From positions 1 through 7,786 of the forward strand of contig CAMPJN010000173.1 in assembly GCA_946886875.1 (NCBI GenBank): 7,786 bases of DNA, written 5' to 3'. This stretch comes from an uncultured Pseudomonas sp. Its GTDB lineage: Bacteria > Pseudomonadota > Gammaproteobacteria > Pseudomonadales > Pseudomonadaceae. How positions within the stretch are numbered: position 1 is the first letter of the stretch; each line of letters begins with the position of its first letter. The notes beneath the pieces are model-generated. The model was not told the origin of the DNA and searched no databases. It saw only the letters and a program-made list of their open reading frames with translations. Shown one piece after another: positions 1 to 7,718 of the stretch. A program made the translations under genes and the position numbers.

Positions 1-1607
1 AGTGGCAGGTACTCGCCGCGCACGCGGATCACCGTGCCGCGATTGCCGCTGAGGCTGTGGACGTCGTCGAGTTGCGGTTGCAGCGACTCGACTATGTAGG
101 TCAGCGGGATCACGTAATGCACGCGCTGCGCCGCGACTATCATGCCGTCGAGAATTGCCAGGGTCAGCGGCAGGCGGATCGAAATACGGGTGCCGACGCC
201 CGCCATCGAGTCGATATCGATACGCCCGCCGATGGCCGAAATATTGCGCCGCACCACGTCCATGCCGACGCCGCGACCGGAGAGGTCGGTGACCACCTCG
301 GCGGTGGAAAAACCGGGCATGAACACCAGTTGCCAGACCTCGCTGTCGGGCATCTCGTCGCTGACCGCAAACCCCTGTTGGCGGGCCTTGGAGATGATCT
401 TGTCGCGGGCCAGGCCGCGGCCGTCGTCGCTGATCTCGACGACGATGCGCCCGCCCTGGTGATAGGCCGCCAGGCGCACCGTGCCGTGCTCAGGCTTGCC
501 GGCGGCGCGGCGTTCGGCGGGCGTTTCGATGCCGTGGTCGACGCTGTTGCGGATGATATGGGTCAGCGGATCGGTGAGTTTTTCGATGACCCCCTTGTCC
601 AGTTCGGTGTGCTCGCCCTGCAGCTGCAGCTCGACCTGCTTGCCGAGCTTGCCGGCGGTGTCGCGCACCAGCCGCGGGAAGCGGTTGAAGATAAAGCTGA
701 TCGGCAGCATGCGGATCGACATCACCGATTCCTGCAACTCGCGGGTGTTGTGTTCGAGCTGGCCGAGGGCCTGATGGATAGCTTCGAATAGGCTCGGATC
801 GAGTTCGGTAGCGAGCTGCGCGAGCATCGCCTGGGTGATCACCAGTTCACCGACCTGATTGATCAGGCTGTCGATCTTTTCCACGCTGACGCGGATCGAG
901 CTGGACTCGCTGTCGCCGCTGCGTCTGTCGTTATTGCGCCGGTCGCTACCGCGCCTATCACCACTGCGGCGTTCTTCCACTGGTGGCGCTGGTGTCGCCG
1001 CTTCGGCCTGCGGCGGCGTACCCGGGGCGTCCTCGAACAGGCCGTAAGCGCTGTCCGTGTTGGCTGGCGCGTCGAACAAGCCGTAAGACTCATCGGTAGC
1101 GGCGGGGTTTGGCAGCCCCGGGGCATCGTCAAAAAAACCAAAGGCGTCGTCTGCGGCGGGGGCATCGTCGAACAAGCCGAAAGCCTGCTCCTCAGTGACA
1201 ACGGGAGCGGCGCTTGGCGCCTGATCGATAAAGCGTTGCAGGCGCGCGAGGGTATCGGAGACGGCGATGTCGGGGTCCTCGCGCTGGTTCTGGTGGGCGG
1301 CGAGCAGTTGCGCGAGGACGTCGCGGGCGGCGAGAAACACGTCGATCATCTCCGCCTGCAGGGCCATCCGCCCGCTGCGCAGTTTGTCCAGCAAGGTCTC
1401 GAGAACGTGGGTCAGCGCGCTCAGGTCGTCGAAGCCGAACATGCCGCTGGCGCCCTTGATCGAATGGGCCGCGCGGAAGATGCCGTCCAACGCCTCCTGA
1501 TCCGGCGCCTGGGTGTCCAGGGTCAGGAGCAGGTGTTCCAGATTGGCCAGATGTTCTTCGGCTTCCTCGAAAAACACCTGGAGAAATTGCTCCATGCCAT
1601 CGTTCAT
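1..1607 (-). CDS. cheA: Chemotaxis histidine kinase CheA (C-terminus cut by window edge)
   Basis: Cytoplasmic kinase that autophosphorylates on its P1 histidine and passes the phosphate to response regulators under receptor control. I translated the frame by hand: 535 residues are visible with no stop. The P1 Hpt domain is at residues 1-125, with phospho-accepting His48 in FRAAHSIKG. A long linker (about 130-235) contains four aromatic-acidic repeats and four RRxxD repeats; I see no folded P2 domain there. P3 dimerisation follows (about 236-300, SIRVSVEKIDSLINQVGELV). The P4 ATPase (about 300-482) has N-box HIIRNSVDHGIE, G1 DDGRGL and G2 GRGVGMDVV. The start of the CheW-like P5 domain (from about 483) is truncated by the edge. 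I chose the start at 1607 because AGG lies 9 nt upstream; Met5 (1595) is the alternative. It lies 42 nt downstream of cheY with no terminator between. CheW, CheR, CheB and CheD genes are expected to the left, but that is inference. Confidence 0.97.
   Translation of the reverse strand, partial: MNDGMEQFLQVFFEEAEEHLANLEHLLLTLDTQAPDQEALDGIFRAAHSIKGASGMFGFDDLSALTHVLETLLDKLRSGRMALQAEMIDVFLAARDVLAQLLAAHQNQREDPDIAVSDTLARLQRFIDQAPSAAPVVTEEQAFGLFDDAPAADDAFGFFDDAPGLPNPAATDESYGLFDAPANTDSAYGLFEDAPGTPPQAEAATPAPPVEERRSGDRRGSDRRNNDRRSGDSESSSIRVSVEKIDSLINQVGELVITQAMLAQLATELDPSLFEAIHQALGQLEHNTRELQESVMSIRMLPISFIFNRFPRLVRDTAGKLGKQVELQLQGEHTELDKGVIEKLTDPLTHIIRNSVDHGIETPAERRAAGKPEHGTVRLAAYHQGGRIVVEISDDGRGLARDKIISKARQQGFAVSDEMPDSEVWQLVFMPGFSTAEVVTDLSGRGVGMDVVRRNISAIGGRIDIDSMAGVGTRISIRLPLTLAILDGMIVAAQRVHYVIPLTYIVESLQPQLDDVHSLSGNRGTVIRVRGEYLP
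912..971 (-). repeat. Four tandem RRxxD pentapeptides in the CheA linker
   Basis: CheA residues 213-232 read RRSGD, RRGSD, RRNND, RRSGD: a perfect RRxxD period-five repeat just before the P3 dimerisation helix. The arginine pairs use different codons in each copy (CGC CGC, AGG CGC, CGG CGC, AGA CGC), including AGG and AGA, which are rare in GC-rich pseudomonads. The repeat is therefore kept at protein level and is not a fresh DNA duplication. The role is unknown; an electrostatic hinge or membrane/array contact is possible. Confidence 0.85.
1023..1184 (-). repeat. Four aromatic-acidic short motifs in the CheA linker
   Basis: Within CheA residues 142-195 the pattern [AS]-[FY]-G-[LF]-F-[DE]-(D)-A-P occurs four times: AFGLFDDAP, AFGFFDDAP, SYGLFDAP and AYGLFEDAP. 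The aromatic residues start at 143, 156, 175 and 188, giving spacings of 13, 19 and 13. The segments between are Ala/Pro/Asp-rich and look disordered. The motif sits where many CheA proteins have the CheY/CheB-binding P2 domain. A docking role is inference; the repetition is directly visible. Confidence 0.85.
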
Positions 1608-1649: not shown

Positions 1650-2015
1650 TTAAGGAAGAACTTTCTTGGTCACCTCCAACAGCTTCGGCGGGTCGAAGGG
1701 CTTGACCAGCCAGCCGGTGGCGCCGGCGGCCTTGCCCTGTTGTTTCATCGCATCGCTGGACTCGGTGGTGAGCATCAGGATCGGCGTGCTGCGATAGCCG
1801 GGTAGGCCGCGCAGGCTTTTGATCAGGCTGATGCCGTCCATGTTCGGCATGTTCTGGTCGGTGAACACCAGTTGATAGCTCTTGCGCTGCGCCTTGCCCA
1901 GGCCATCGCGGCCATCCACGGCTTCGTCGACCTCGTAGCCGGCGGCGCGCAGGGTGAAACCGAGCATCTGCCGGATAGAGGTCGAGTCATCGACTATCAG
2001 GATGGTTTTGCTCAT
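1650..2015 (-). CDS. cheY: CheY-like single-domain response regulator
   Basis: A 121-residue stand-alone receiver, the expected length for CheY and the likely phosphate acceptor of the CheA encoded next to it. Asp9/Asp10 form the metal-binding acidic pair, Asp53 in FTDQNMPNMDG is the phosphorylation site, Thr84 is the conserved switch Thr and Lys105 (VKPF) is the conserved Lys. The position three residues before the Lys, Tyr106 in E. coli CheY, is Trp102 here (GWLVKPF). I chose the ATG at 2015 because GGAG lies 7 nt upstream (2026-2023) and because it forms a 4-nt ATGA overlap with the stop of the preceding regulator gene, typical of translational coupling. The open frame extends far upstream, but that part is antiparallel coding shadow of the neighbour. 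Whether it acts on the flagellar motor or on another output cannot be seen from sequence. Confidence 0.97.
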   Translation of the reverse strand: MSKTILIVDDSTSIRQMLGFTLRAAGYEVDEAVDGRDGLGKAQRKSYQLVFTDQNMPNMDGISLIKSLRGLPGYRSTPILMLTTESSDAMKQQGKAAGATGWLVKPFDPPKLLEVTKKVLP

Positions 2016-3775
2016 GAGATCGCTCCGTGCTGAGTGCGGATAGTGGCGTTGGCCGTCGGGGCAATGGCGTCGGGATGGCTCTGCTGCGCCTGGCCCCAGC
2101 ACAGTTCGGCCTTGACGCTGTTGCCCGGTGGATAGAACACCAGCTGCTGACACAGGCTGCGCACCAGGATCAGGCCGCGGCCGTGGTACTGATGGTTGAG
2201 GTCCTGGTCGAGCGGCAGCCGCTCGATATCGAAGCCTTTGCCGCTGTCGCAGACCCGCACCTGCAGGCTGTTGCCGCTGGCGTTGCCTTGCTGGCGCACC
2301 TCGACCCGGATCTCGCCCTGGGTCAGCGCGGCCAGGCGTTCGCGGCGGGTCTCGAAGTACTGCTCGAAACCGTCGGGCAGGTTCTTCATCGCTGAGTTGA
2401 GGCCGAGCAGGCCGTGGTCCAGGGCGTTGCTCAGCAGCTCGTAGAGAATCACCGCCAGGGCGCCCTGTTTTTCCGCGGCCAGGCCCAGGGTGTTGCATTG
2501 GGCGGCGACTATCGGCGCCAGGTCCAGGCGCTGCAGCTGGGTGACGCCGAAGCTCAGTTGCAGCTGCCAGTTCTCGGCGATTGCGCCGCCGACCTGTGGC
2601 GTCGGGCCATCGGTGCTGGCCTCCACGGCGCTGCATTCGAGCAGCAGGCAGGACAGATCGTCGTGCGGTTGGCGGCCATTCATATGGCTCAGCAACGCCT
2701 GTTGCAGGCTATCGATCAGGTCGCCGCGCGCGGGTTGTTGCAGGCATTGTTCCAGACGCGCCTTGCCGAACGGCTGGTGCGCGGCGTTCTCCGCCTCGAT
2801 CAAACCGTCGGAATACAGCAGCAGGCGTTGCCCTGGCGTGACGGCGACGGTTTCGTGCAGGTTTTCGAAATCGTCGCCATCGACGATGCCCAGCGGCAGG
2901 TTCAACGAGTTGAAACGGCGCACCACGGCGCCTTGCGGGTCGAGTAGCAGGGCTGCCGGAACGCCGCCGTTCCATACCGTCAGCAGGTTCTCGCGGGGGC
3001 GGTATTGCACCAGCAGGGCGGCGACGAAGCGGTCGACCGGCGAATAGGCGCGGTGGCGCAGGTTCAGTTCCCAGGCGATGCTGTCGAGGGTGAAGCCCTT
3101 GCTTGCCATGGCGTAGAAGGCTTGCGACAGCGGAATCAGGGTCAGCGCCGCGGGCAGGCCATGGCCGGTGGCGTCGGCGAGCATCACGTAGAGGTCGCCA
3201 TTGCTCGACGGACAGGCCAGCAGCAGGTCGCCTGAAACCTCGTTGGCCGGTTGCAGCAGGTAACGCACTTGCGGGTGGTCGAGCAGCTCGCTGCGCACCA
3301 GCCGGCTCATCAGGAAACGGCTGATGCGCCGTTCCTCGGCCTCGGCGTGGCGGTACTGCAACAGCTGGCGGTTCTGTTCGGCGACCTGCTCCTGGAGCAT
3401 GGCAATGCGCCCGAAGGCATTGATCTTGGCGGCGAGGATGGCGAAGTTCACCGGTTTGCCGATGAAGTCGTCGCAGCCGGCATCGAGCGAGGCGACCTGA
3501 TCGTCGGTTTCGCTCAAGCCCGAGAGCATGATGATCGGCCGCCAGCCACTGAGCTTTTGCAACTCGCGGATCGCCCGGGTGGCCGCGATGCCGCCCATGC
3601 CGGGCATCAGTTGGTCCATCAACACCAGGTCGAAGGCTGACTGCCGATACTGCTGCACCGCCCGCTCGCCGTCGCCGACCACCGTGCATTCATGCCCGAG
3701 GGAATGAATGAAGGTCTTGAGCAACAGGCCGAGGGTGGGATCGTCGTCGACGCTGAGGACGTTCAGGGGGCGCAT
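2012..3775 (-). CDS. REC-PP2C(SpoIIE/RsbU)-HATPase fused response regulator
   Basis: A 587-residue cytoplasmic regulator with three modules. The receiver (1-122) has Asp10/Asp11, phospho-acceptor Asp54 in VLMDQLMPGMGG and Lys107 in GKPV. A short coiled coil (about 125-150) leads into a SpoIIE/RsbU-type PP2C phosphatase (about 170-382), with metal-binding Asp183 (EVSGD), Asp201 (ADATGHG), DGL at 323-325 and Asp372/Asp373 (HDD). The C-terminal GHKL/RsbW-like ATPase (about 405-562) has N-box YELLSNALDHG (Glu446, Asn450), G1 CDSGKGF and G2 HGRGLILV. In this family the PP2C dephosphorylates, and the RsbW-like kinase phosphorylates, a STAS antagonist; the upstream gene encodes exactly such a protein. 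The start lies 7 nt after the STAS stop, with GAGTGAG in front of it. Phosphorylation by CheA is inferred from the operon. Similar proteins sit beside cheY-cheA in other F7-type clusters. Confidence 0.93.
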   Translation of the reverse strand: MRPLNVLSVDDDPTLGLLLKTFIHSLGHECTVVGDGERAVQQYRQSAFDLVLMDQLMPGMGGIAATRAIRELQKLSGWRPIIMLSGLSETDDQVASLDAGCDDFIGKPVNFAILAAKINAFGRIAMLQEQVAEQNRQLLQYRHAEAEERRISRFLMSRLVRSELLDHPQVRYLLQPANEVSGDLLLACPSSNGDLYVMLADATGHGLPAALTLIPLSQAFYAMASKGFTLDSIAWELNLRHRAYSPVDRFVAALLVQYRPRENLLTVWNGGVPAALLLDPQGAVVRRFNSLNLPLGIVDGDDFENLHETVAVTPGQRLLLYSDGLIEAENAAHQPFGKARLEQCLQQPARGDLIDSLQQALLSHMNGRQPHDDLSCLLLECSAVEASTDGPTPQVGGAIAENWQLQLSFGVTQLQRLDLAPIVAAQCNTLGLAAEKQGALAVILYELLSNALDHGLLGLNSAMKNLPDGFEQYFETRRERLAALTQGEIRVEVRQQGNASGNSLQVRVCDSGKGFDIERLPLDQDLNHQYHGRGLILVRSLCQQLVFYPPGNSVKAELCWGQAQQSHPDAIAPTANATIRTQHGAIS

Positions 3776-3782
3776 GGCTCAC

Positions 3783-4073
3783 TCAACTGATTTTGAACAG
3801 CTTCTGGAAATTGGCCACTTCGAATACGTCCTTGGCGGTGCCGTGCAGGCTGCGCAACTCCACACGCTTGTGCTGCGCCTGGGCCTTGTCGCGCAGCAGC
3901 AGGAGGATGCCGAGGGCGGCCGAGTCGATGTACTGCACCGCATGCAGATCGATGATCAGTACCTGCACCTCGGTTTTCGCCAGTTCCTGCTCATAGGCCT
4001 CGCGAAAGCCCCGGTAGGCCTGGAAGTCGAAACGTTCTCCGAGACGGATAACGGCTGTACCTGCGTCGCTCAT
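3783..4073 (-). CDS. STAS-domain anti-sigma factor antagonist-like protein
   Basis: A 96-residue single STAS domain, the normal size for SpoIIAA/RsbV-type antagonists. The core reads VLIIDLHAVQYIDSAALGILL, with Ser51 in the IDSAALG loop as the predicted phosphorylation site. The N-terminal beta strands (GTAVIRLGERFDF) and the C-terminal helix (DVFEVANFQKLFKI) fit the fold. AGGAAG precedes the ATG with about 8 nt spacing, and the receptor-like gene ends 17 nt upstream. The next gene, 7 nt downstream, encodes a protein with both a PP2C phosphatase and an RsbW-like kinase domain, so Ser51 is the obvious substrate of both (inference). The final target is not visible: no sigma factor lies in the window, and in SypA/SypE-like systems of Vibrio a STAS protein acts without one. 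Confidence 0.93.
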   Translation of the reverse strand: MSDAGTAVIRLGERFDFQAYRGFREAYEQELAKTEVQVLIIDLHAVQYIDSAALGILLLLRDKAQAQHKRVELRSLHGTAKDVFEVANFQKLFKIS

Positions 4074-4090
4074 AACAATGGCTTCCTATC

Positions 4091-5308
4091 CTAGAAAAAA
4101 TCGATTTCGCCGGCGTGCATCGAGGTCTGGTTGACCGGGTTGTGCACGTGGCTGTCGAGCTGTCGACGCTGGCTGTCGAGGCGATCCTGCTGGGCGTCCT
4201 GGCTAAGTTGCGCGACGCCTTCAAGACCGCCGCAGACCCGTTCGAGCTTTTCCGTGTGCTTGCCGATCTGGGCCAGCAGCTGGCTGCTGAGATCCTGGAA
4301 TTGCAAGGCGGTGATGGCCGCGTTTACGTCAACGGAAAAGGCTCTGGATATCTGCTCCAGTTCTTCCACGGCGATCACTGTCGAGCCGTTCATCTGCTCC
4401 AGTTCGTCGAGCATGGTGTGGATTTTCTTCTTCGAGGTCATGGCCACGCTCATATCCCTGGCCGCCAACTGGCTGATCGCGGCGTCGGCCTGCTGCAACT
4501 CGGCGTGTACGGTATTGATGTGGGTGCGAATGGCTTCGGAGAACACGCTGGAACGGGTCGACAGCGCGCGTACTTCATCGGCGACCACGGCGAAACCGCG
4601 GCCGGCCTCGCCGGCGCGTGCGGCCTCGATGGCGGCATTCAGCGCGAGCAAATTGGTTTGTTTGGCGATGGCGTCCATGTCTGCGGTGGATTTCACGATT
4701 TCGCCGATCTTCGCCGTAATACGGTCGATGCTGTCGACCAGCTCCATCGAGGTGCGGCTGGTTTCCACGGTGGCATCGACGAAGAAACTCAGGGTCTCCT
4801 GGGTGGTGCTGACGAATTGGCCGAAGTTCACCTCGCGACTGTCGTGCTGATCGGCCCGGTAGCGGTCGGTAAGCGAACCGGCGATCTGTAACTGGCGCTC
4901 GATCAGCTGGTTGAGGCGGGTGAAGCTGCCGATCAAGCCGTCGATCGCCGTGCCGAGCAATTGATCGATCTGGCGGCTGCGCTCGGCGATCGCTTGCGCC
5001 TCGTTAGCCACCCCTTGGCGCACGGGCTCGAATTCGTCGTGCAGCGCCAGGTTGGCCGACTGCGCCTGCTCGGATGCGCTCGCGTCGAGTGCCTCGCGTT
5101 GGCACAGGCGGCGGTACAGGTAGGCGAAGCTGGCCAGGCTTGCGAGCGCGCCGGGGATCAGCGCCTGCCAACCGGACAACCCGGCGCCGAGCAGCGCCAG
5201 GCTCAACAGCCAGGGCATGCCGAACAGACTGGAAAGGAGGGGGATAGGTAGCGGTGAGGTGCTTTGTCCGAGCATTGAGCGACTAATCCCTGTGCAATAC
5301 GGATTCAT
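4091..5308 (-). CDS. Methyl-accepting chemotaxis-like protein, no sensor domain, CheZ-like C-terminal motif
   Basis: A 405-residue membrane-anchored receptor-type signalling protein, first in the operon. A tight hydrophobic hairpin (about 22-45 and 48-66) with almost no periplasmic loop leads into a long helical region (70-213). The hallmark hairpin tip (about 214-250) includes [17 protein letters not shown] and [13 protein letters not shown]. The returning arm is helical to about 360. I see no HAMP, PAS or periplasmic ligand-binding domain, and no NWETF-type CheR tether. Near the end, [11 protein letters not shown] (335-345) matches the CheZ catalytic region (FQDLTGQ, DxxxQ), with Asp339 and Gln343 in register. 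The protein stops in EIDFF. It should couple to CheA/CheW, with a possible extra phosphatase role (inference). The start is uncertain: ATG 5308 lacks a well-spaced SD, while ATG 5275 (Met12) has AGGGA 11 nt upstream and suits the candidate promoter better. Confidence 0.9.
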
Positions 5309-5464: not shown

Positions 5465-5595
5465 GGTGAAAATATTCTTAGCAGGCGACGAACTAAATTG
5501 ACCGAATAGACAATAAGCCGGCGCGAGCAAACATGGACGGCCGTGCAAGGACCGGGCAGGCTACGACGCTTCCTTGTTTTGTCGTCGGAGTAACC

Positions 5596-5982
5596 ATGAC
5601 GCTCGCTTACTGGTGTGTGCTGATCGCCCTGTTCCTGCCTTATCTGTCCACTGTCACGGCGAAACTGGTCAGTGGCGGTTTCCATCCCAGGCACAACTAT
5701 GATCCGCGGGCTTTGCTCGACAACCTCAGCGGTCTCGGCCGGCGCGCCAACAATGCCCAACTCAACAGCTTCGAGGTCACCCCGGCGTTTGCCGTGGCGG
5801 TGATCATCGCCCACCTCGCCGGCGGTGCCGAGCAGGCCTTGCTCGATCAGTTGGCCATCGCCTTTATCGTCAGCCGCCTGCTCTATTTCATTTGCTATAT
5901 CGCCGACTGGGCGTCGCTGCGCTCGCTGGTCTGGTTTGTCGGCATTGGGTTGATTGTCAGTCTGTTTGTGGTTGCCGCCTGA
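5596..5982 (+). CDS. MAPEG-family integral membrane protein
   Basis: A 128-residue inner-membrane protein with four hydrophobic segments (about 4-22, 60-78, 84-102, 107-126), the size and topology of short bacterial MAPEG (eicosanoid and glutathione metabolism) proteins. Family-type signatures are RANNAQLNSFE (50-60), with the Arg/Asn/Glu pattern of the MAPEG second-helix region, and RLLYFICYIAD (94-104), with the Arg-Tyr-Tyr pattern of the third. A polar loop with HPRHNYDPR lies between helices 1 and 2. I chose ATG 5596 because GGAG lies 5 nt upstream; a longer reading from 5533 adds a non-hydrophobic leader with no SD. Substrate and reaction are unknown; members include glutathione transferases, but many bacterial ones are uncharacterised. 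It is divergent from the chemosensory operon, and nothing in the sequence ties it to chemotaxis. Confidence 0.9.
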   Translation: MTLAYWCVLIALFLPYLSTVTAKLVSGGFHPRHNYDPRALLDNLSGLGRRANNAQLNSFEVTPAFAVAVIIAHLAGGAEQALLDQLAIAFIVSRLLYFICYIADWASLRSLVWFVGIGLIVSLFVVAA

Positions 5983-6128: not shown

Positions 6129-7718
6129 ATGTCAGTCACGCTGCTTTTCGATCGCCTGCTGTGCGCTATAGGTCTGCGCACCCTGAATCAACAGTTTCTG
6201 TTCTCCTATGCCTTGATGTTCCTGCTGGCGCTGGTCGCCTCAGTGGCGCTGTATCTGAATATGGCGGTGTCGCCGGAAACCATCAACGTGGCGGGCGCTC
6301 AGCGCATGCTCAGCCAGAAAATGAGCAAAGAGGCCCTGTTATTGCGTGAGGGGGCCATCGAGCGGGCGGTGCTGGACGCCACCATCAGCCAGTTCGCCCA
6401 GGCCCACGAGGCCCTGCTCAAGGGCAACGTCGAGCGCAAGATCAGCGTGATCCAAGCCCCGGAGGTTCAGGCGCAGATGCTGTTGGTTGGGCGTTTGTGG
6501 GAGGGCTTCCGCGTGCAATTGGAAACCTCGGCCAGTGCTGCCGAGAAGGTCGATCTGGCTGCTCTGGAAGGCGCTTCGACCCAGTTGCTGCGGGAAATGA
6601 ACAAGGCGGTCGGGCTGATGGCGACGCATATCGAGAGTCGCCAACGCGACCTGATGTGGCTAGCCTTCGGCTGTTTGGTGGGGATTCTGCTGCTAGTGGT
6701 ATTGGGCAGGCAGTTTGGCTTGCGGCCACTAATGAGCAACCTGAACCTGGTGGAACACGGCCTGACTCGGGTCGGCGGTGGCGATTTCACCCGGCGTCTG
6801 GAGGGCGGGCAGCGCGACAACGAAATTGGCAGGATCATCGCCGGCTATAACCGCATGCAGGCGGAGGTGCGCGCTTTGTTGGGCGAGGTCAAAGCCTCGG
6901 GCGGGAATACCCAGGCGCATGTCGAACAGGCGGTGACGGCGGCCCAGGCCGCGGGAGATGGCGCGCGGCGCCAACATGAGAACCTCGATCAGATGGCTAC
7001 CGCGATGACCGAGATGAGCGCAACCGTCGCCGAAGTAGCGCGACATGCCAGCCTGGCTGCGGAGTCCACGCGCAATGCCGATGAATGCGCCCAGGCCGGG
7101 CAGCGCGCGGTGCAGCGCAGCGCTGAGCTGTTGACCAGCCTGAGCGCCCAGATGGAACGTAATGCCGAAGGCCTGGTGGCCCTGCGCGAGGAAACTGCCG
7201 GGGTCGGTAAGGTATTGGAAGTAATTACCGCGATTGCCGAGCAAACCAATCTGCTGGCGCTCAACGCCGCCATCGAAGCGGCCCGCGCCGGTGAGGCCGG
7301 ACGCGGTTTCGCCGTGGTCGCCGACGAAGTGCGCACCCTGGCCAGCCGCACTCAACAATCCACTGGGGAAATCCAGGTCATTATTCAGCGCTTGCAAGCG
7401 GGGGCGGAGCAGGCCGTGGCGGCGATTCAGAGCAGCAGCGAACTGGTGCGCAGCAATCTGCAGCATGTGCAGGAGGCCAATCAGGTGCTCGATACCATAG
7501 TCGGAGCGGTGGATAGCATCAATACGATGAACGCGCAGATCGCCACCGCTGCGGAAGAGCAAAGCCAGGTGGCCCAGGATATCGATCAGCGTGTCGCCGA
7601 AGTCTCAGGGTTGGCCGAGCGTGGTCATGGCGACGCGCAGAGCGTGATGCAGGTCAGTGACCGAATTCATAGCGAGATACAGCGTCTGACCGCTCAGCTG
7701 AGCCGCTTTCAGACTTGA
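6129..7718 (+). CDS. Transmembrane chemoreceptor with PilJ/NarX-type periplasmic domain
   Basis: A 529-residue inner-membrane methyl-accepting chemotaxis protein of complete, normal architecture. TM1 is about 22-42, the periplasmic domain 43-175, TM2 about 176-193, HAMP about 194-248 and the cytoplasmic hairpin 250-529. The tip (about 368-403) carries [17 protein letters not shown] and [13 protein letters not shown]. Candidate methylation helices lie around 291-308 and 473-485. Right after TM1, [19 protein letters not shown] (52-70) is the P-box-like signature of PilJ and NarX/NarQ sensors, with Arg59 the likely nitrate-contact residue. P. aeruginosa McpN has such a domain and mediates nitrate taxis, so nitrate sensing is a fair inference, though PilJ domains can have other ligands. 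GAGGGA lies 6 nt before the ATG. The C-terminus (LSRFQT) has no CheR-tethering pentapeptide. It stands alone on the plus strand, so it may feed a different kinase from the one encoded here. Confidence 0.94.

What the first reader, a model, noticed from the sequence alone, without database searches (positions are those of the whole stretch)
4094..4303. Receptor-like protein with a CheZ-like DxxxQ motif and a CheY-docking-like C-terminus
Seen: residues 335-345 read [11 protein letters not shown], and the protein ends in GEIDFF 60 residues later. Known: E. coli CheZ dephosphorylates CheY-P using Asp143 and Gln147 in a helix reading DFQDLTGQ, and ends about 65 residues later in a CheY-binding peptide; FliM binds CheY through an N-terminal peptide containing EIDALL. 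The motif, its register (Asp339, Gln343), the distance to the C-terminus and the acidic-hydrophobic end all parallel CheZ. Inference: this operon-encoded MCP-like protein may be a receptor-phosphatase acting on CheY or on the REC-PP2C protein. No separate cheZ is visible in the window.
Basis: partly seen in the sequence, partly recalled or inferred. Interest (0 to 1): 0.8.

Follow-up and report, generated by a model that had tools for sequence, protein, structure and literature searches.

The report
Chemoreceptor carrying a CheZ-like module
A bacterial chemosensory receptor appears to contain, wrapped around its signalling hairpin, a small module resembling the enzyme CheZ that switches off the messenger protein CheY, which could explain how a signalling system without a cheZ gene in its cluster resets its messenger.

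Summary
The 405-aa ORF (5308-4091, minus strand) is an F7-system McpA/CttP-type receptor with A334-x-x-F337-Q338-D339-x3-Q343, ending GEIDFF. Of 237 homologues listed by two searches, 235 keep motif and tail.

Three results go further. (1) The module persists without the receptor: a Gallionella-type family lost the MCP tip but keeps the motif in 119 and the tail in 120 of 120. Eleven frames of 152-212 aa, little more than helix 1, motif helix and tail, stand in mcpA's place before cheY and cheA. (2) McpA's outer helix matches helix 1 of those minis, so the MCP hairpin sits inside the module. (3) Comparison with CheZ falls in register (D339 on D143): Prob 54-66 for McpA, 85 for a motif-selected module set, but 9-22 for the minis alone. 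Kinship with CheZ is suggested, not proven.

Best reading: a receptor with a built-in CheZ-like phosphatase for its own F7 CheY; REC-PP2C is a poor candidate substrate. No activity was measured. I found no report of this (listings).

The parts
4091..5308 (-). McpA/CttP-type receptor, 405-aa ORF (probable start Met12 at 5275, 394 aa)
   Evidence: PF00015 E 1.2e-24; relatives include a P. aeruginosa protein named CttP
5111..5245 (-). hydrophobic N-terminal helices, about residues 22-66 (membrane anchor, inferred from sequence)
   Evidence: helices 22-41 and 46 onward; hydrophobic sequence
4856..5026 (-). outer helix N0, residues 95-151, with invariant A121, F129, Q139: helix 1 of the module
   Evidence: McpA 80-152 alone matches mini-protein helix 1, Prob 92.5, E 4.8e-7; two other McpA helices 0.7 and 0.4
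4391..4825 (-). MCP signalling hairpin, residues 162-306, between the two helices of the module
   Evidence: PF00015 188-323; lost or degenerate in relatives
4220..4390 (-). helix 2 of the module, residues 307-363
4280..4309 (-). CheZ-like motif A334-x-x-F337-Q338-D339-x3-Q343 (D339 codon 4292-4294, Q343 codon 4280-4282)
   Evidence: published CheZ signature seen
4094..4138 (-). C-terminal tail [15 protein letters not shown], residues 391-405, proposed CheY-docking peptide
   Evidence: Q394, G400, F405 132/132; low confidence and no helix in the model
3783..4073 (-). STAS protein (CrsA-like by position)
2012..3775 (-). REC-PP2C(SpoIIE)-HATPase protein (CrsR-like by domains and position)
1650..2015 (-). 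F7-type cheY, proposed substrate
   Evidence: PF00072 E 3.6e-28
3..1607 (-). F7-type cheA, cut by the window edge

Best explanation
The protein is an F7-system McpA-type chemoreceptor whose MCP hairpin lies inside a CheZ-like module: outer helix N0 (residues 95-151), helix 2 with A-x-x-F-Q-D339-x3-Q343, a flexible linker and the tail Q394...GEIDFF. Inferred mechanism: the tail docks on the alpha4-beta5-alpha5 face of the F7 CheY encoded downstream. The stem then presents Asp339 and Gln343 to its phospho-aspartate, and the Gln side chain places water for hydrolysis as in CheZ. Shown here: identity, invariance, helix phase, the modular architecture and the cheY partnership. Inferred: docking, catalysis and any gating by the receptor.
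For: Motif and tail in 235/237 homologues. Gln at D+4 and an [IV][DE]LF end in 80/80 loci found with a pattern ending in LQFQD and confirmed by tblastn. Tip-less family: 0/120 with MCP tip, 119/120 motif, 120/120 tail. Eleven mini frames of 152-212 aa, all followed by single-domain cheY and by cheA of an F7-type cluster. The mini profile gives split hits on both sides of the MCP hairpin in 6 genomes; N0 alone matches mini helix 1, E 4.8e-7, two other helices do not. cheY starts at most 200 bp after mcpA in 69/80 loci, at 350 bp in one, at 2.06-2.36 kb in 8; 2 contigs end too early. CheZ profile in register: McpA Prob 65.5, E 5.8e-5; C-terminal part 58, score 31.9 against 10.7-17.4 in 10 shuffles and 16.8 reversed; broad module 84.9, E 6.4e-6, score 37 against 7.6-15.4 in 20 shuffles. 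Heptad profile r 0.96 at the CheZ phase, next 0.60. 78 F7 CheYs keep D57, N59, T87, E89, K109 (78/78) and K or R at 26 (72+6).
Against: No activity or binding was measured. PF04344 11.3 bits is below the cut-off 30.7; 12 of 31 aligned members match it at E up to 10 (best 0.0034), but unrelated coiled-coil models match as many (BLOC1_2 18 of 31). Minis alone match CheZ weakly (Prob 21.8 and 9.1), the tip-less family 0.8 and 0.3; N0 does not match CheZ (2.9). The 84 rows of the broad module were picked by carrying QFxD, which shuffles do not control for. Control helices of ordinary PA7 MCPs score up to 19.5 against the CheZ module and 20.5 against whole CheZ, higher than shuffles though below McpA's motif helix (29.1). 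A helix phase agrees by chance one time in seven. The A2 profile reached CheZ in 1 of 21 genomes at E 0.05 (L170), the level of ~250-aa proteins that I recognise, from recall, as PhoU. VcCheY4, an F7 CheY (cluster III/F7), was reported not to bind FliM and argued not to bind CheZ (PMC3774744, passages), so the docking peptide would have to differ. Fold searches listed MCPs or generic helical bundles, not CheZ.
Confidence: 0.7

Rival explanations
1. CheY anchor or phosphate sink: the module binds F7 CheY-P to hold it at an array without hydrolysing it.
For: Tail and partnership with cheY are as constant as the motif; McpA is reported to sit in F6 arrays while its gene belongs to F7 (PMC7184735 passages; PMC9855816 section 3.4).
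Against: Gln343 is as invariant as any residue and has no obvious job in mere binding; D and Q sit at the same helix phases as in CheZ.
Confidence: 0.15
2. Receptor-internal role: motif and tail serve receptor packing, methylation or docking of CheR, CheB or CheD, not CheY.
For: The tail end resembles CheR-tether pentapeptides in position; the motif lies at a register where 3 of the 21 other PA7 MCPs read also have hydrophobic-x-D-x3-Q.
Against: Module kept in proteins without the MCP tip and in short frames of 152-212 aa; the P. aeruginosa McpA C-terminus was reported not to interact with any of 4 CheR homologues (PMC7184735 passage).
Confidence: 0.08
3. The phosphatase acts mainly on another receiver: the REC-PP2C-HATPase protein encoded next to it, or the F6 CheY of the array in which McpA sits.
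For: In the window mcpA directly precedes STAS and REC-PP2C; two ~340-aa relatives read in context also precede STAS and REC-PP2C (L249, L250); McpA localises with F6-type CheA3 in Shewanella.
Against: STAS matched in 19/80 loci and near-full-length REC-PP2C in 10/80, against cheY in 78/80; the REC of REC-PP2C has His, Leu, Leu at positions 26, 59, 89; 11/11 minis sit beside a cheY 60-69% identical to the window's, two of them in clusters that also hold a second cheY with its own cheZ.
Confidence: 0.07

Closest known systems
CheZ (PF04344)
   Same: AxxFQDxxxQ signature, helix phase, flexible linker, acidic-hydrophobic C-terminal peptide, partnership with cheY; profile alignment in register
   Different: Below the PF04344 cut-off; here the two helices are separated by an MCP hairpin with hydrophobic N-terminal helices before them; the tail ends GDIELF-like rather than VDDLLxSLGF or SQxDIDALF; helix 1 not detectably related; minis and tip-less family match CheZ only weakly
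McpA/CttP (PA0180), VCA1088, SO_2117: F7 McpA-like receptors
   Same: Same family and gene cluster type; highly conserved C-terminus noted by Ortega et al. 2020 (PMC7184735, passages), who called its role unclear
   Different: No phosphatase reading is given in the passages and discussion that I saw; the link to CheZ and to mini proteins is proposed here
CheC/CheX/FliY and Rap phosphatases
   Same: Use a side-chain amide to place water at the phospho-aspartate (PMC3035606, passages)
   Different: Other protein families; I did not compare their sequences or folds with this one
CrsA/CrsR partner-switch genes of Shewanella che1
   Different: STAS found in 19 and near-full-length REC-PP2C in 10 of 80 McpA loci

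Membership tests
CheZ (PF04344) | PF04344 score above the curated cut-off | tested here: not met
   11.3 bits against 30.7
CheZ (PF04344) | catalytic Asp and Gln, DxxxQ, with AxxFQ before it | tested here: met
   A334..Q343; D and Q 132/132 in the McpA alignment; signature from PMC7750401 passages. The CheZ rows used for comparison were themselves picked by this motif, so their 53/53 is no independent count
CheZ (PF04344) | profile homology along the catalytic helix | tested here: inconclusive
   in register, Prob 54-66 for McpA, 85 for a motif-selected module set, but 9-22 for minis and under 1 for the tip-less family
CheZ (PF04344) | C-terminal CheY-binding peptide | tested here: inconclusive
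   tail invariant; mini tails such as TQSEMDAGSIDLF resemble alpha-type CheZ tails such as SQDDIDALF, but binding cannot be tested here
CheZ (PF04344) | dimeric four-helix bundle fold | tested here: inconclusive
   models of low confidence (pTM 0.39 and 0.38); fold comparisons undiscriminating
CheZ (PF04344) | accelerates CheY-P dephosphorylation | not testable with these tools
   needs purified proteins
McpA-like F7 receptor | MCP signalling domain | tested here: met
   PF00015 E 1.2e-24
[quoted passage not shown]
   window gene order and the description in PMC7184735 (passages)
McpA-like F7 receptor | conserved C-terminus without the CheR pentapeptide | tested here: met
   the last five residues EIDFF have Ile where x-[HFYW]-x2-[HFYW] needs an aromatic residue

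The most novel reading that the evidence does not exclude
F7-type chemosensory systems possess their own, so far unnamed, family of CheZ-like CheY-P phosphatases. It exists as short frames of 152-212 aa, as forms without a receptor tip, and as receptors (McpA) in which a complete MCP hairpin lies inside the phosphatase hairpin, so that one protein could couple array state to removal of its own output signal. CheZ of the flagellar systems would be a distant member of the same superfamily.
Probability: 0.4. Interest if true: 0.87.

Novelty: new variant of a known kind. Interest (0 to 1): 0.76.

Why it matters
Ortega et al. left open why the McpA C-terminus is so conserved and what McpA does for F7, whose stage 1 and 2 clusters have no cheZ. 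A V. cholerae study left open what turns over CheY4, encoded in the F7 cluster, which did not bind FliM and by its argument not CheZ. A built-in phosphatase would answer these together and predicts single residues to test. It would be a case of a receptor hairpin lying inside a phosphatase, with kinase control and phosphatase in one array component, and it offers a lead on where CheZ came from.

Tried and rejected
Rejected: DxxxQ spacing alone as evidence (same-register hits in 3 other PA7 MCPs). PF04344 weak hits as evidence by themselves (BLOC1_2 hits 18 and CheZ 12 of 31 members). Helix 1 of CheZ as a proven relative of N0 (Prob 2.9; a spliced alignment did cover both helices, but at Prob 25.7 it was no better than the C-terminal part alone at 58). 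Structural proof: AF2 drew no turn at the MCP tip; Foldseek listed MCPs first for the full protein and generic helical bundles for the tip-less one; CheZ is in none of the 50 rows shown, which excludes nothing. REC-PP2C as main substrate. A tblastn of one mini protein against plasmids: no match. Literature: no paper found that describes a phosphatase role for McpA or a CheZ-like module in a receptor (listings; the library lacks most subscription papers).

Limits of the counts: A2 and A4 searches are seeded on the module, so proteins lacking both motif and tail would not be found; what they show is loss of the receptor part. In one search the pattern fixed LQFQD and tblastn over the module confirmed each hit. 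'Tip absent' was called by a pattern in 23 of 29 loci, which are the best-scoring ones; of three read in full L192 is degenerate, L205 more so, L215 has none. Of 15 frames under 215 aa, 14 were fetched: 11 minis, 2 of the FYDxxxQ family, 1 alpha-type CheZ. Frame lengths are stop to stop. In some searches at most 10 or 11 candidates a genome were scored. The 132-row alignment leaves out P0091, P0115, the tip-less P0231 and P0240, frames under 340 aa and near-duplicates. The 78 CheYs were picked by similarity to the window's CheY and include it. In one search, 22 receptors were read from 25 matches in PA7.

Full report
What it is. The reading frame 5308-4091 (minus strand) has an MCP signalling domain and belongs to the McpA/CttP family of F7 chemosensory systems: its relatives include a P. 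aeruginosa protein named CttP. The gene order mcpA - STAS - REC-PP2C-HATPase - cheY - cheA fits the early F7 clusters described by Ortega et al. 2020 (PMC7184735, passages and discussion seen). That paper notes that with stage 1 and 2 F7 systems only the F6 cluster has cheZ, that McpA is not needed for the F7 array, and that the McpA C-terminus is strikingly conserved with an unclear role.

The observation. Asp339, Gln343 and the GEIDFF end are as stated. The stretch matches the published extended CheZ signature AXXFQ followed by DXXXQ (PMC7750401, passages). Of 237 homologues listed by two searches, 235 keep motif and tail. In 132 aligned members D339, Q343, Q394, G400 and F405 never vary, and neither do A121, F129 and Q139 in the outer helix N0. 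From the Asp to the end there are about 57 to 83 residues in members with a tail, as expected of a flexible linker. Spacing alone is weak evidence: three other receptors of PA7, of 22 read, have hydrophobic-x-D-x3-Q at the same register.

Partnership with CheY. In 80 loci from genome contigs (best of 478 relatives), found with a pattern ending in LQFQD and confirmed by tblastn, all 80 have Gln at +4 and end in [IV][DE]LF. A single-domain CheY starts within 200 bp downstream on the same strand in 69 of 80, at 350 bp in one and at 2.06-2.36 kb in 8; in 2 the contig ends. In 7 of those 8 STAS and REC-PP2C lie between; in L053 the stretch is unidentified. By tblastn, CheA is nearby in 77 of 80, the window's STAS in 19, a near-full-length REC-PP2C in 10 and E. 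coli CheZ in 5 (contigs differ in length). CheZ exists elsewhere in 21 of 21 such genomes, as expected for a separate motility system.

The module stands without the receptor. Searching with P0240 lists 120 proteins with no MCP tip; 119 keep FQDxxxQ and 120 the tail, and the profile alignment with McpA (Prob 100, E 7e-45) shows the tip region missing. In 398 Pseudomonadota genomes the module profile hits 108. All 29 new loci read, the best-scoring ones, have motif and tail, and in 23 the canonical tip pattern is missing. Eleven frames of 152-212 aa hold little besides helix 1, motif helix and tail (alignment A4). All eleven are followed by cheY and, by similarity to the PA7 F7 cluster, by cheA and further F7-type genes, in mcpA's place (in L242 a receptor gene lies between cheY and cheA). 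Two of these clusters (L241, L243) also hold a second cheY with a cheZ at the other end, so each phosphatase candidate sits beside its own CheY. Four minis scanned in Pfam and six in NCBIfam fall in no family above cut-off; the best CheZ hit is L225, PF04344 15.5 bits, E 0.016.

Architecture. The mini profile gives split hits on either side of the MCP hairpin, in frames of the same length on the same contig, in six genomes (G247, G132, G108, G062, G069, G121) of 86 with a match. McpA helix N0 alone matches mini helix 1 at Prob 92.5, E 4.8e-7, while two other McpA helices give 0.7 and 0.4. So the MCP hairpin is an insertion in, or the minis are an excision from, one two-helix module. Which came first is not settled.

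Relation to CheZ. Profile comparison aligns D339 with CheZ D143 (alignment printed). McpA against 53 CheZ gives Prob 65.5, E 5.8e-5, and its C-terminal part 53.8. A set of 84 modules gives Prob 84.9, E 6.4e-6, score 37, against 7.6-15.4 in 20 column shuffles; its rows were picked by carrying QFxD, which the shuffles do not control for. McpA's motif helix scores 29.1, its other helices 16.5-18.5. Ordinary PA7 MCP helices score 12.5 and 19.5 against the CheZ module, 20.5 and 18.7 against whole CheZ. E-values are for single comparisons. The hydrophobic phase profile of the helix matches CheZ at r 0.96 at zero shift (next best 0.60), with D339 and Q343 on polar phases; one phase in seven would agree by chance. 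This answers the worry that the face is buried as far as sequence can. The A2 profile also reached an alpha-type CheZ (L234, PF04344 E 1.5e-11) at E 8.5e-4 in one genome of 398, marginal after that many genomes, and a gamma CheZ in 1 of 21 genomes at noise level. Against: PF04344 is not passed, N0 does not match CheZ, minis alone give 9.1-21.8 and the tip-less family 0.3-0.8, and fold comparisons are undiscriminating. I therefore do not file it as CheZ; common descent and convergence both remain open.

Substrate. In 78 F7 CheYs from these searches, positions equivalent to E. coli Asp57, Asn59, Thr87, Glu89 and Lys109 are invariant and position 26 is Lys (72) or Arg (6). The REC of REC-PP2C has His, Leu and Leu at 26, 59 and 89. 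The docking face differs from E. coli (I95 to K, A99 to K/R, Y106 to W, K119 to V), which fits a different docking peptide. CheY4 of V. cholerae, in the F7 cluster, was reported not to bind FliM and argued not to bind CheZ (PMC3774744, passages). The role of positions 26, 59 and 89 in CheZ sensitivity is recalled, not read here.

Tail. Mini tails (mostly TQSEMDAGS[IV][DE]LF) resemble alpha-type CheZ tails (such as SQDDIDALF) and, from recall, the FliM peptide SQxEIDALL. A CheR tether is unlikely: an earlier study cited in PMC7184735 found no interaction of McpA with CheR, and the tail survives in proteins without a receptor tip. In two tandem pairs (L228, L229) the first copy lacks the tail and has Glu in place of the motif Asp, so both marks are lost together there.

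Mechanism and confidence. Shown: identity, invariance, modularity, cheY partnership. Inferred: docking by the tail, Gln-assisted hydrolysis as in CheZ (mechanism from PMC3035606, passages), and possible gating by receptor state. McpA has been placed with F6-type CheA3 in Shewanella (PMC9855816, section 3.4 and discussion). Overproduced McpA raised swimming there, but so did three other MCPs, so this says nothing on phosphatase activity. I put 0.7 on the phosphatase reading.

Noticed in passing
L157-L162, L235, L236 (6 of 21 genomes; 2 fetched): A ~190-240-aa family without MCP tip, with AFQFYDxxxQR and an [DE]IELF end; three scanned in Pfam and NCBIfam fall in no family above cut-off; no receiver gene in the held flanks. 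Possibly another CheZ-like branch.
   Followed up: partly
L164, L173, L175: A different MCP-like family with LQFQDRVSQ and an EITFF or DITFF end, each directly followed by a CheY gene.
   Followed up: partly
L192, L193, L195-L201, L203-L216: About 330-460-aa frames (one of 631), mostly LQFEDMVxQ with a VxQxxMDEG[DE][IV]ELF-type tail and without the canonical MCP tip; two loci read in context (L249, L250) lie before STAS and REC-PP2C.
   Followed up: partly
L228, L229: Tandem paralogues whose first copy lacks both the tail and the motif Asp (LQFEETVT, LHYEEVVT).
   Followed up: no
L241, L243: Clusters with mini-cheY-cheA at one end and cheY-cheZ at the other: apparently two CheY/phosphatase-candidate pairs side by side.
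   Followed up: partly
L105-L107: Second, divergent CheZ paralogues with AQAFQDLVGQ and an SQxxVDxLFG end in three genomes.
   Followed up: no
window 5533-5982 (+): MAPEG family protein (PF01124 E 6.8e-27), divergent from the operon.
   Followed up: no
window 6129-7718 (+): PilJ-HAMP-MCP receptor next to the F7 cluster, ending without the McpA-type tail.
   Followed up: no
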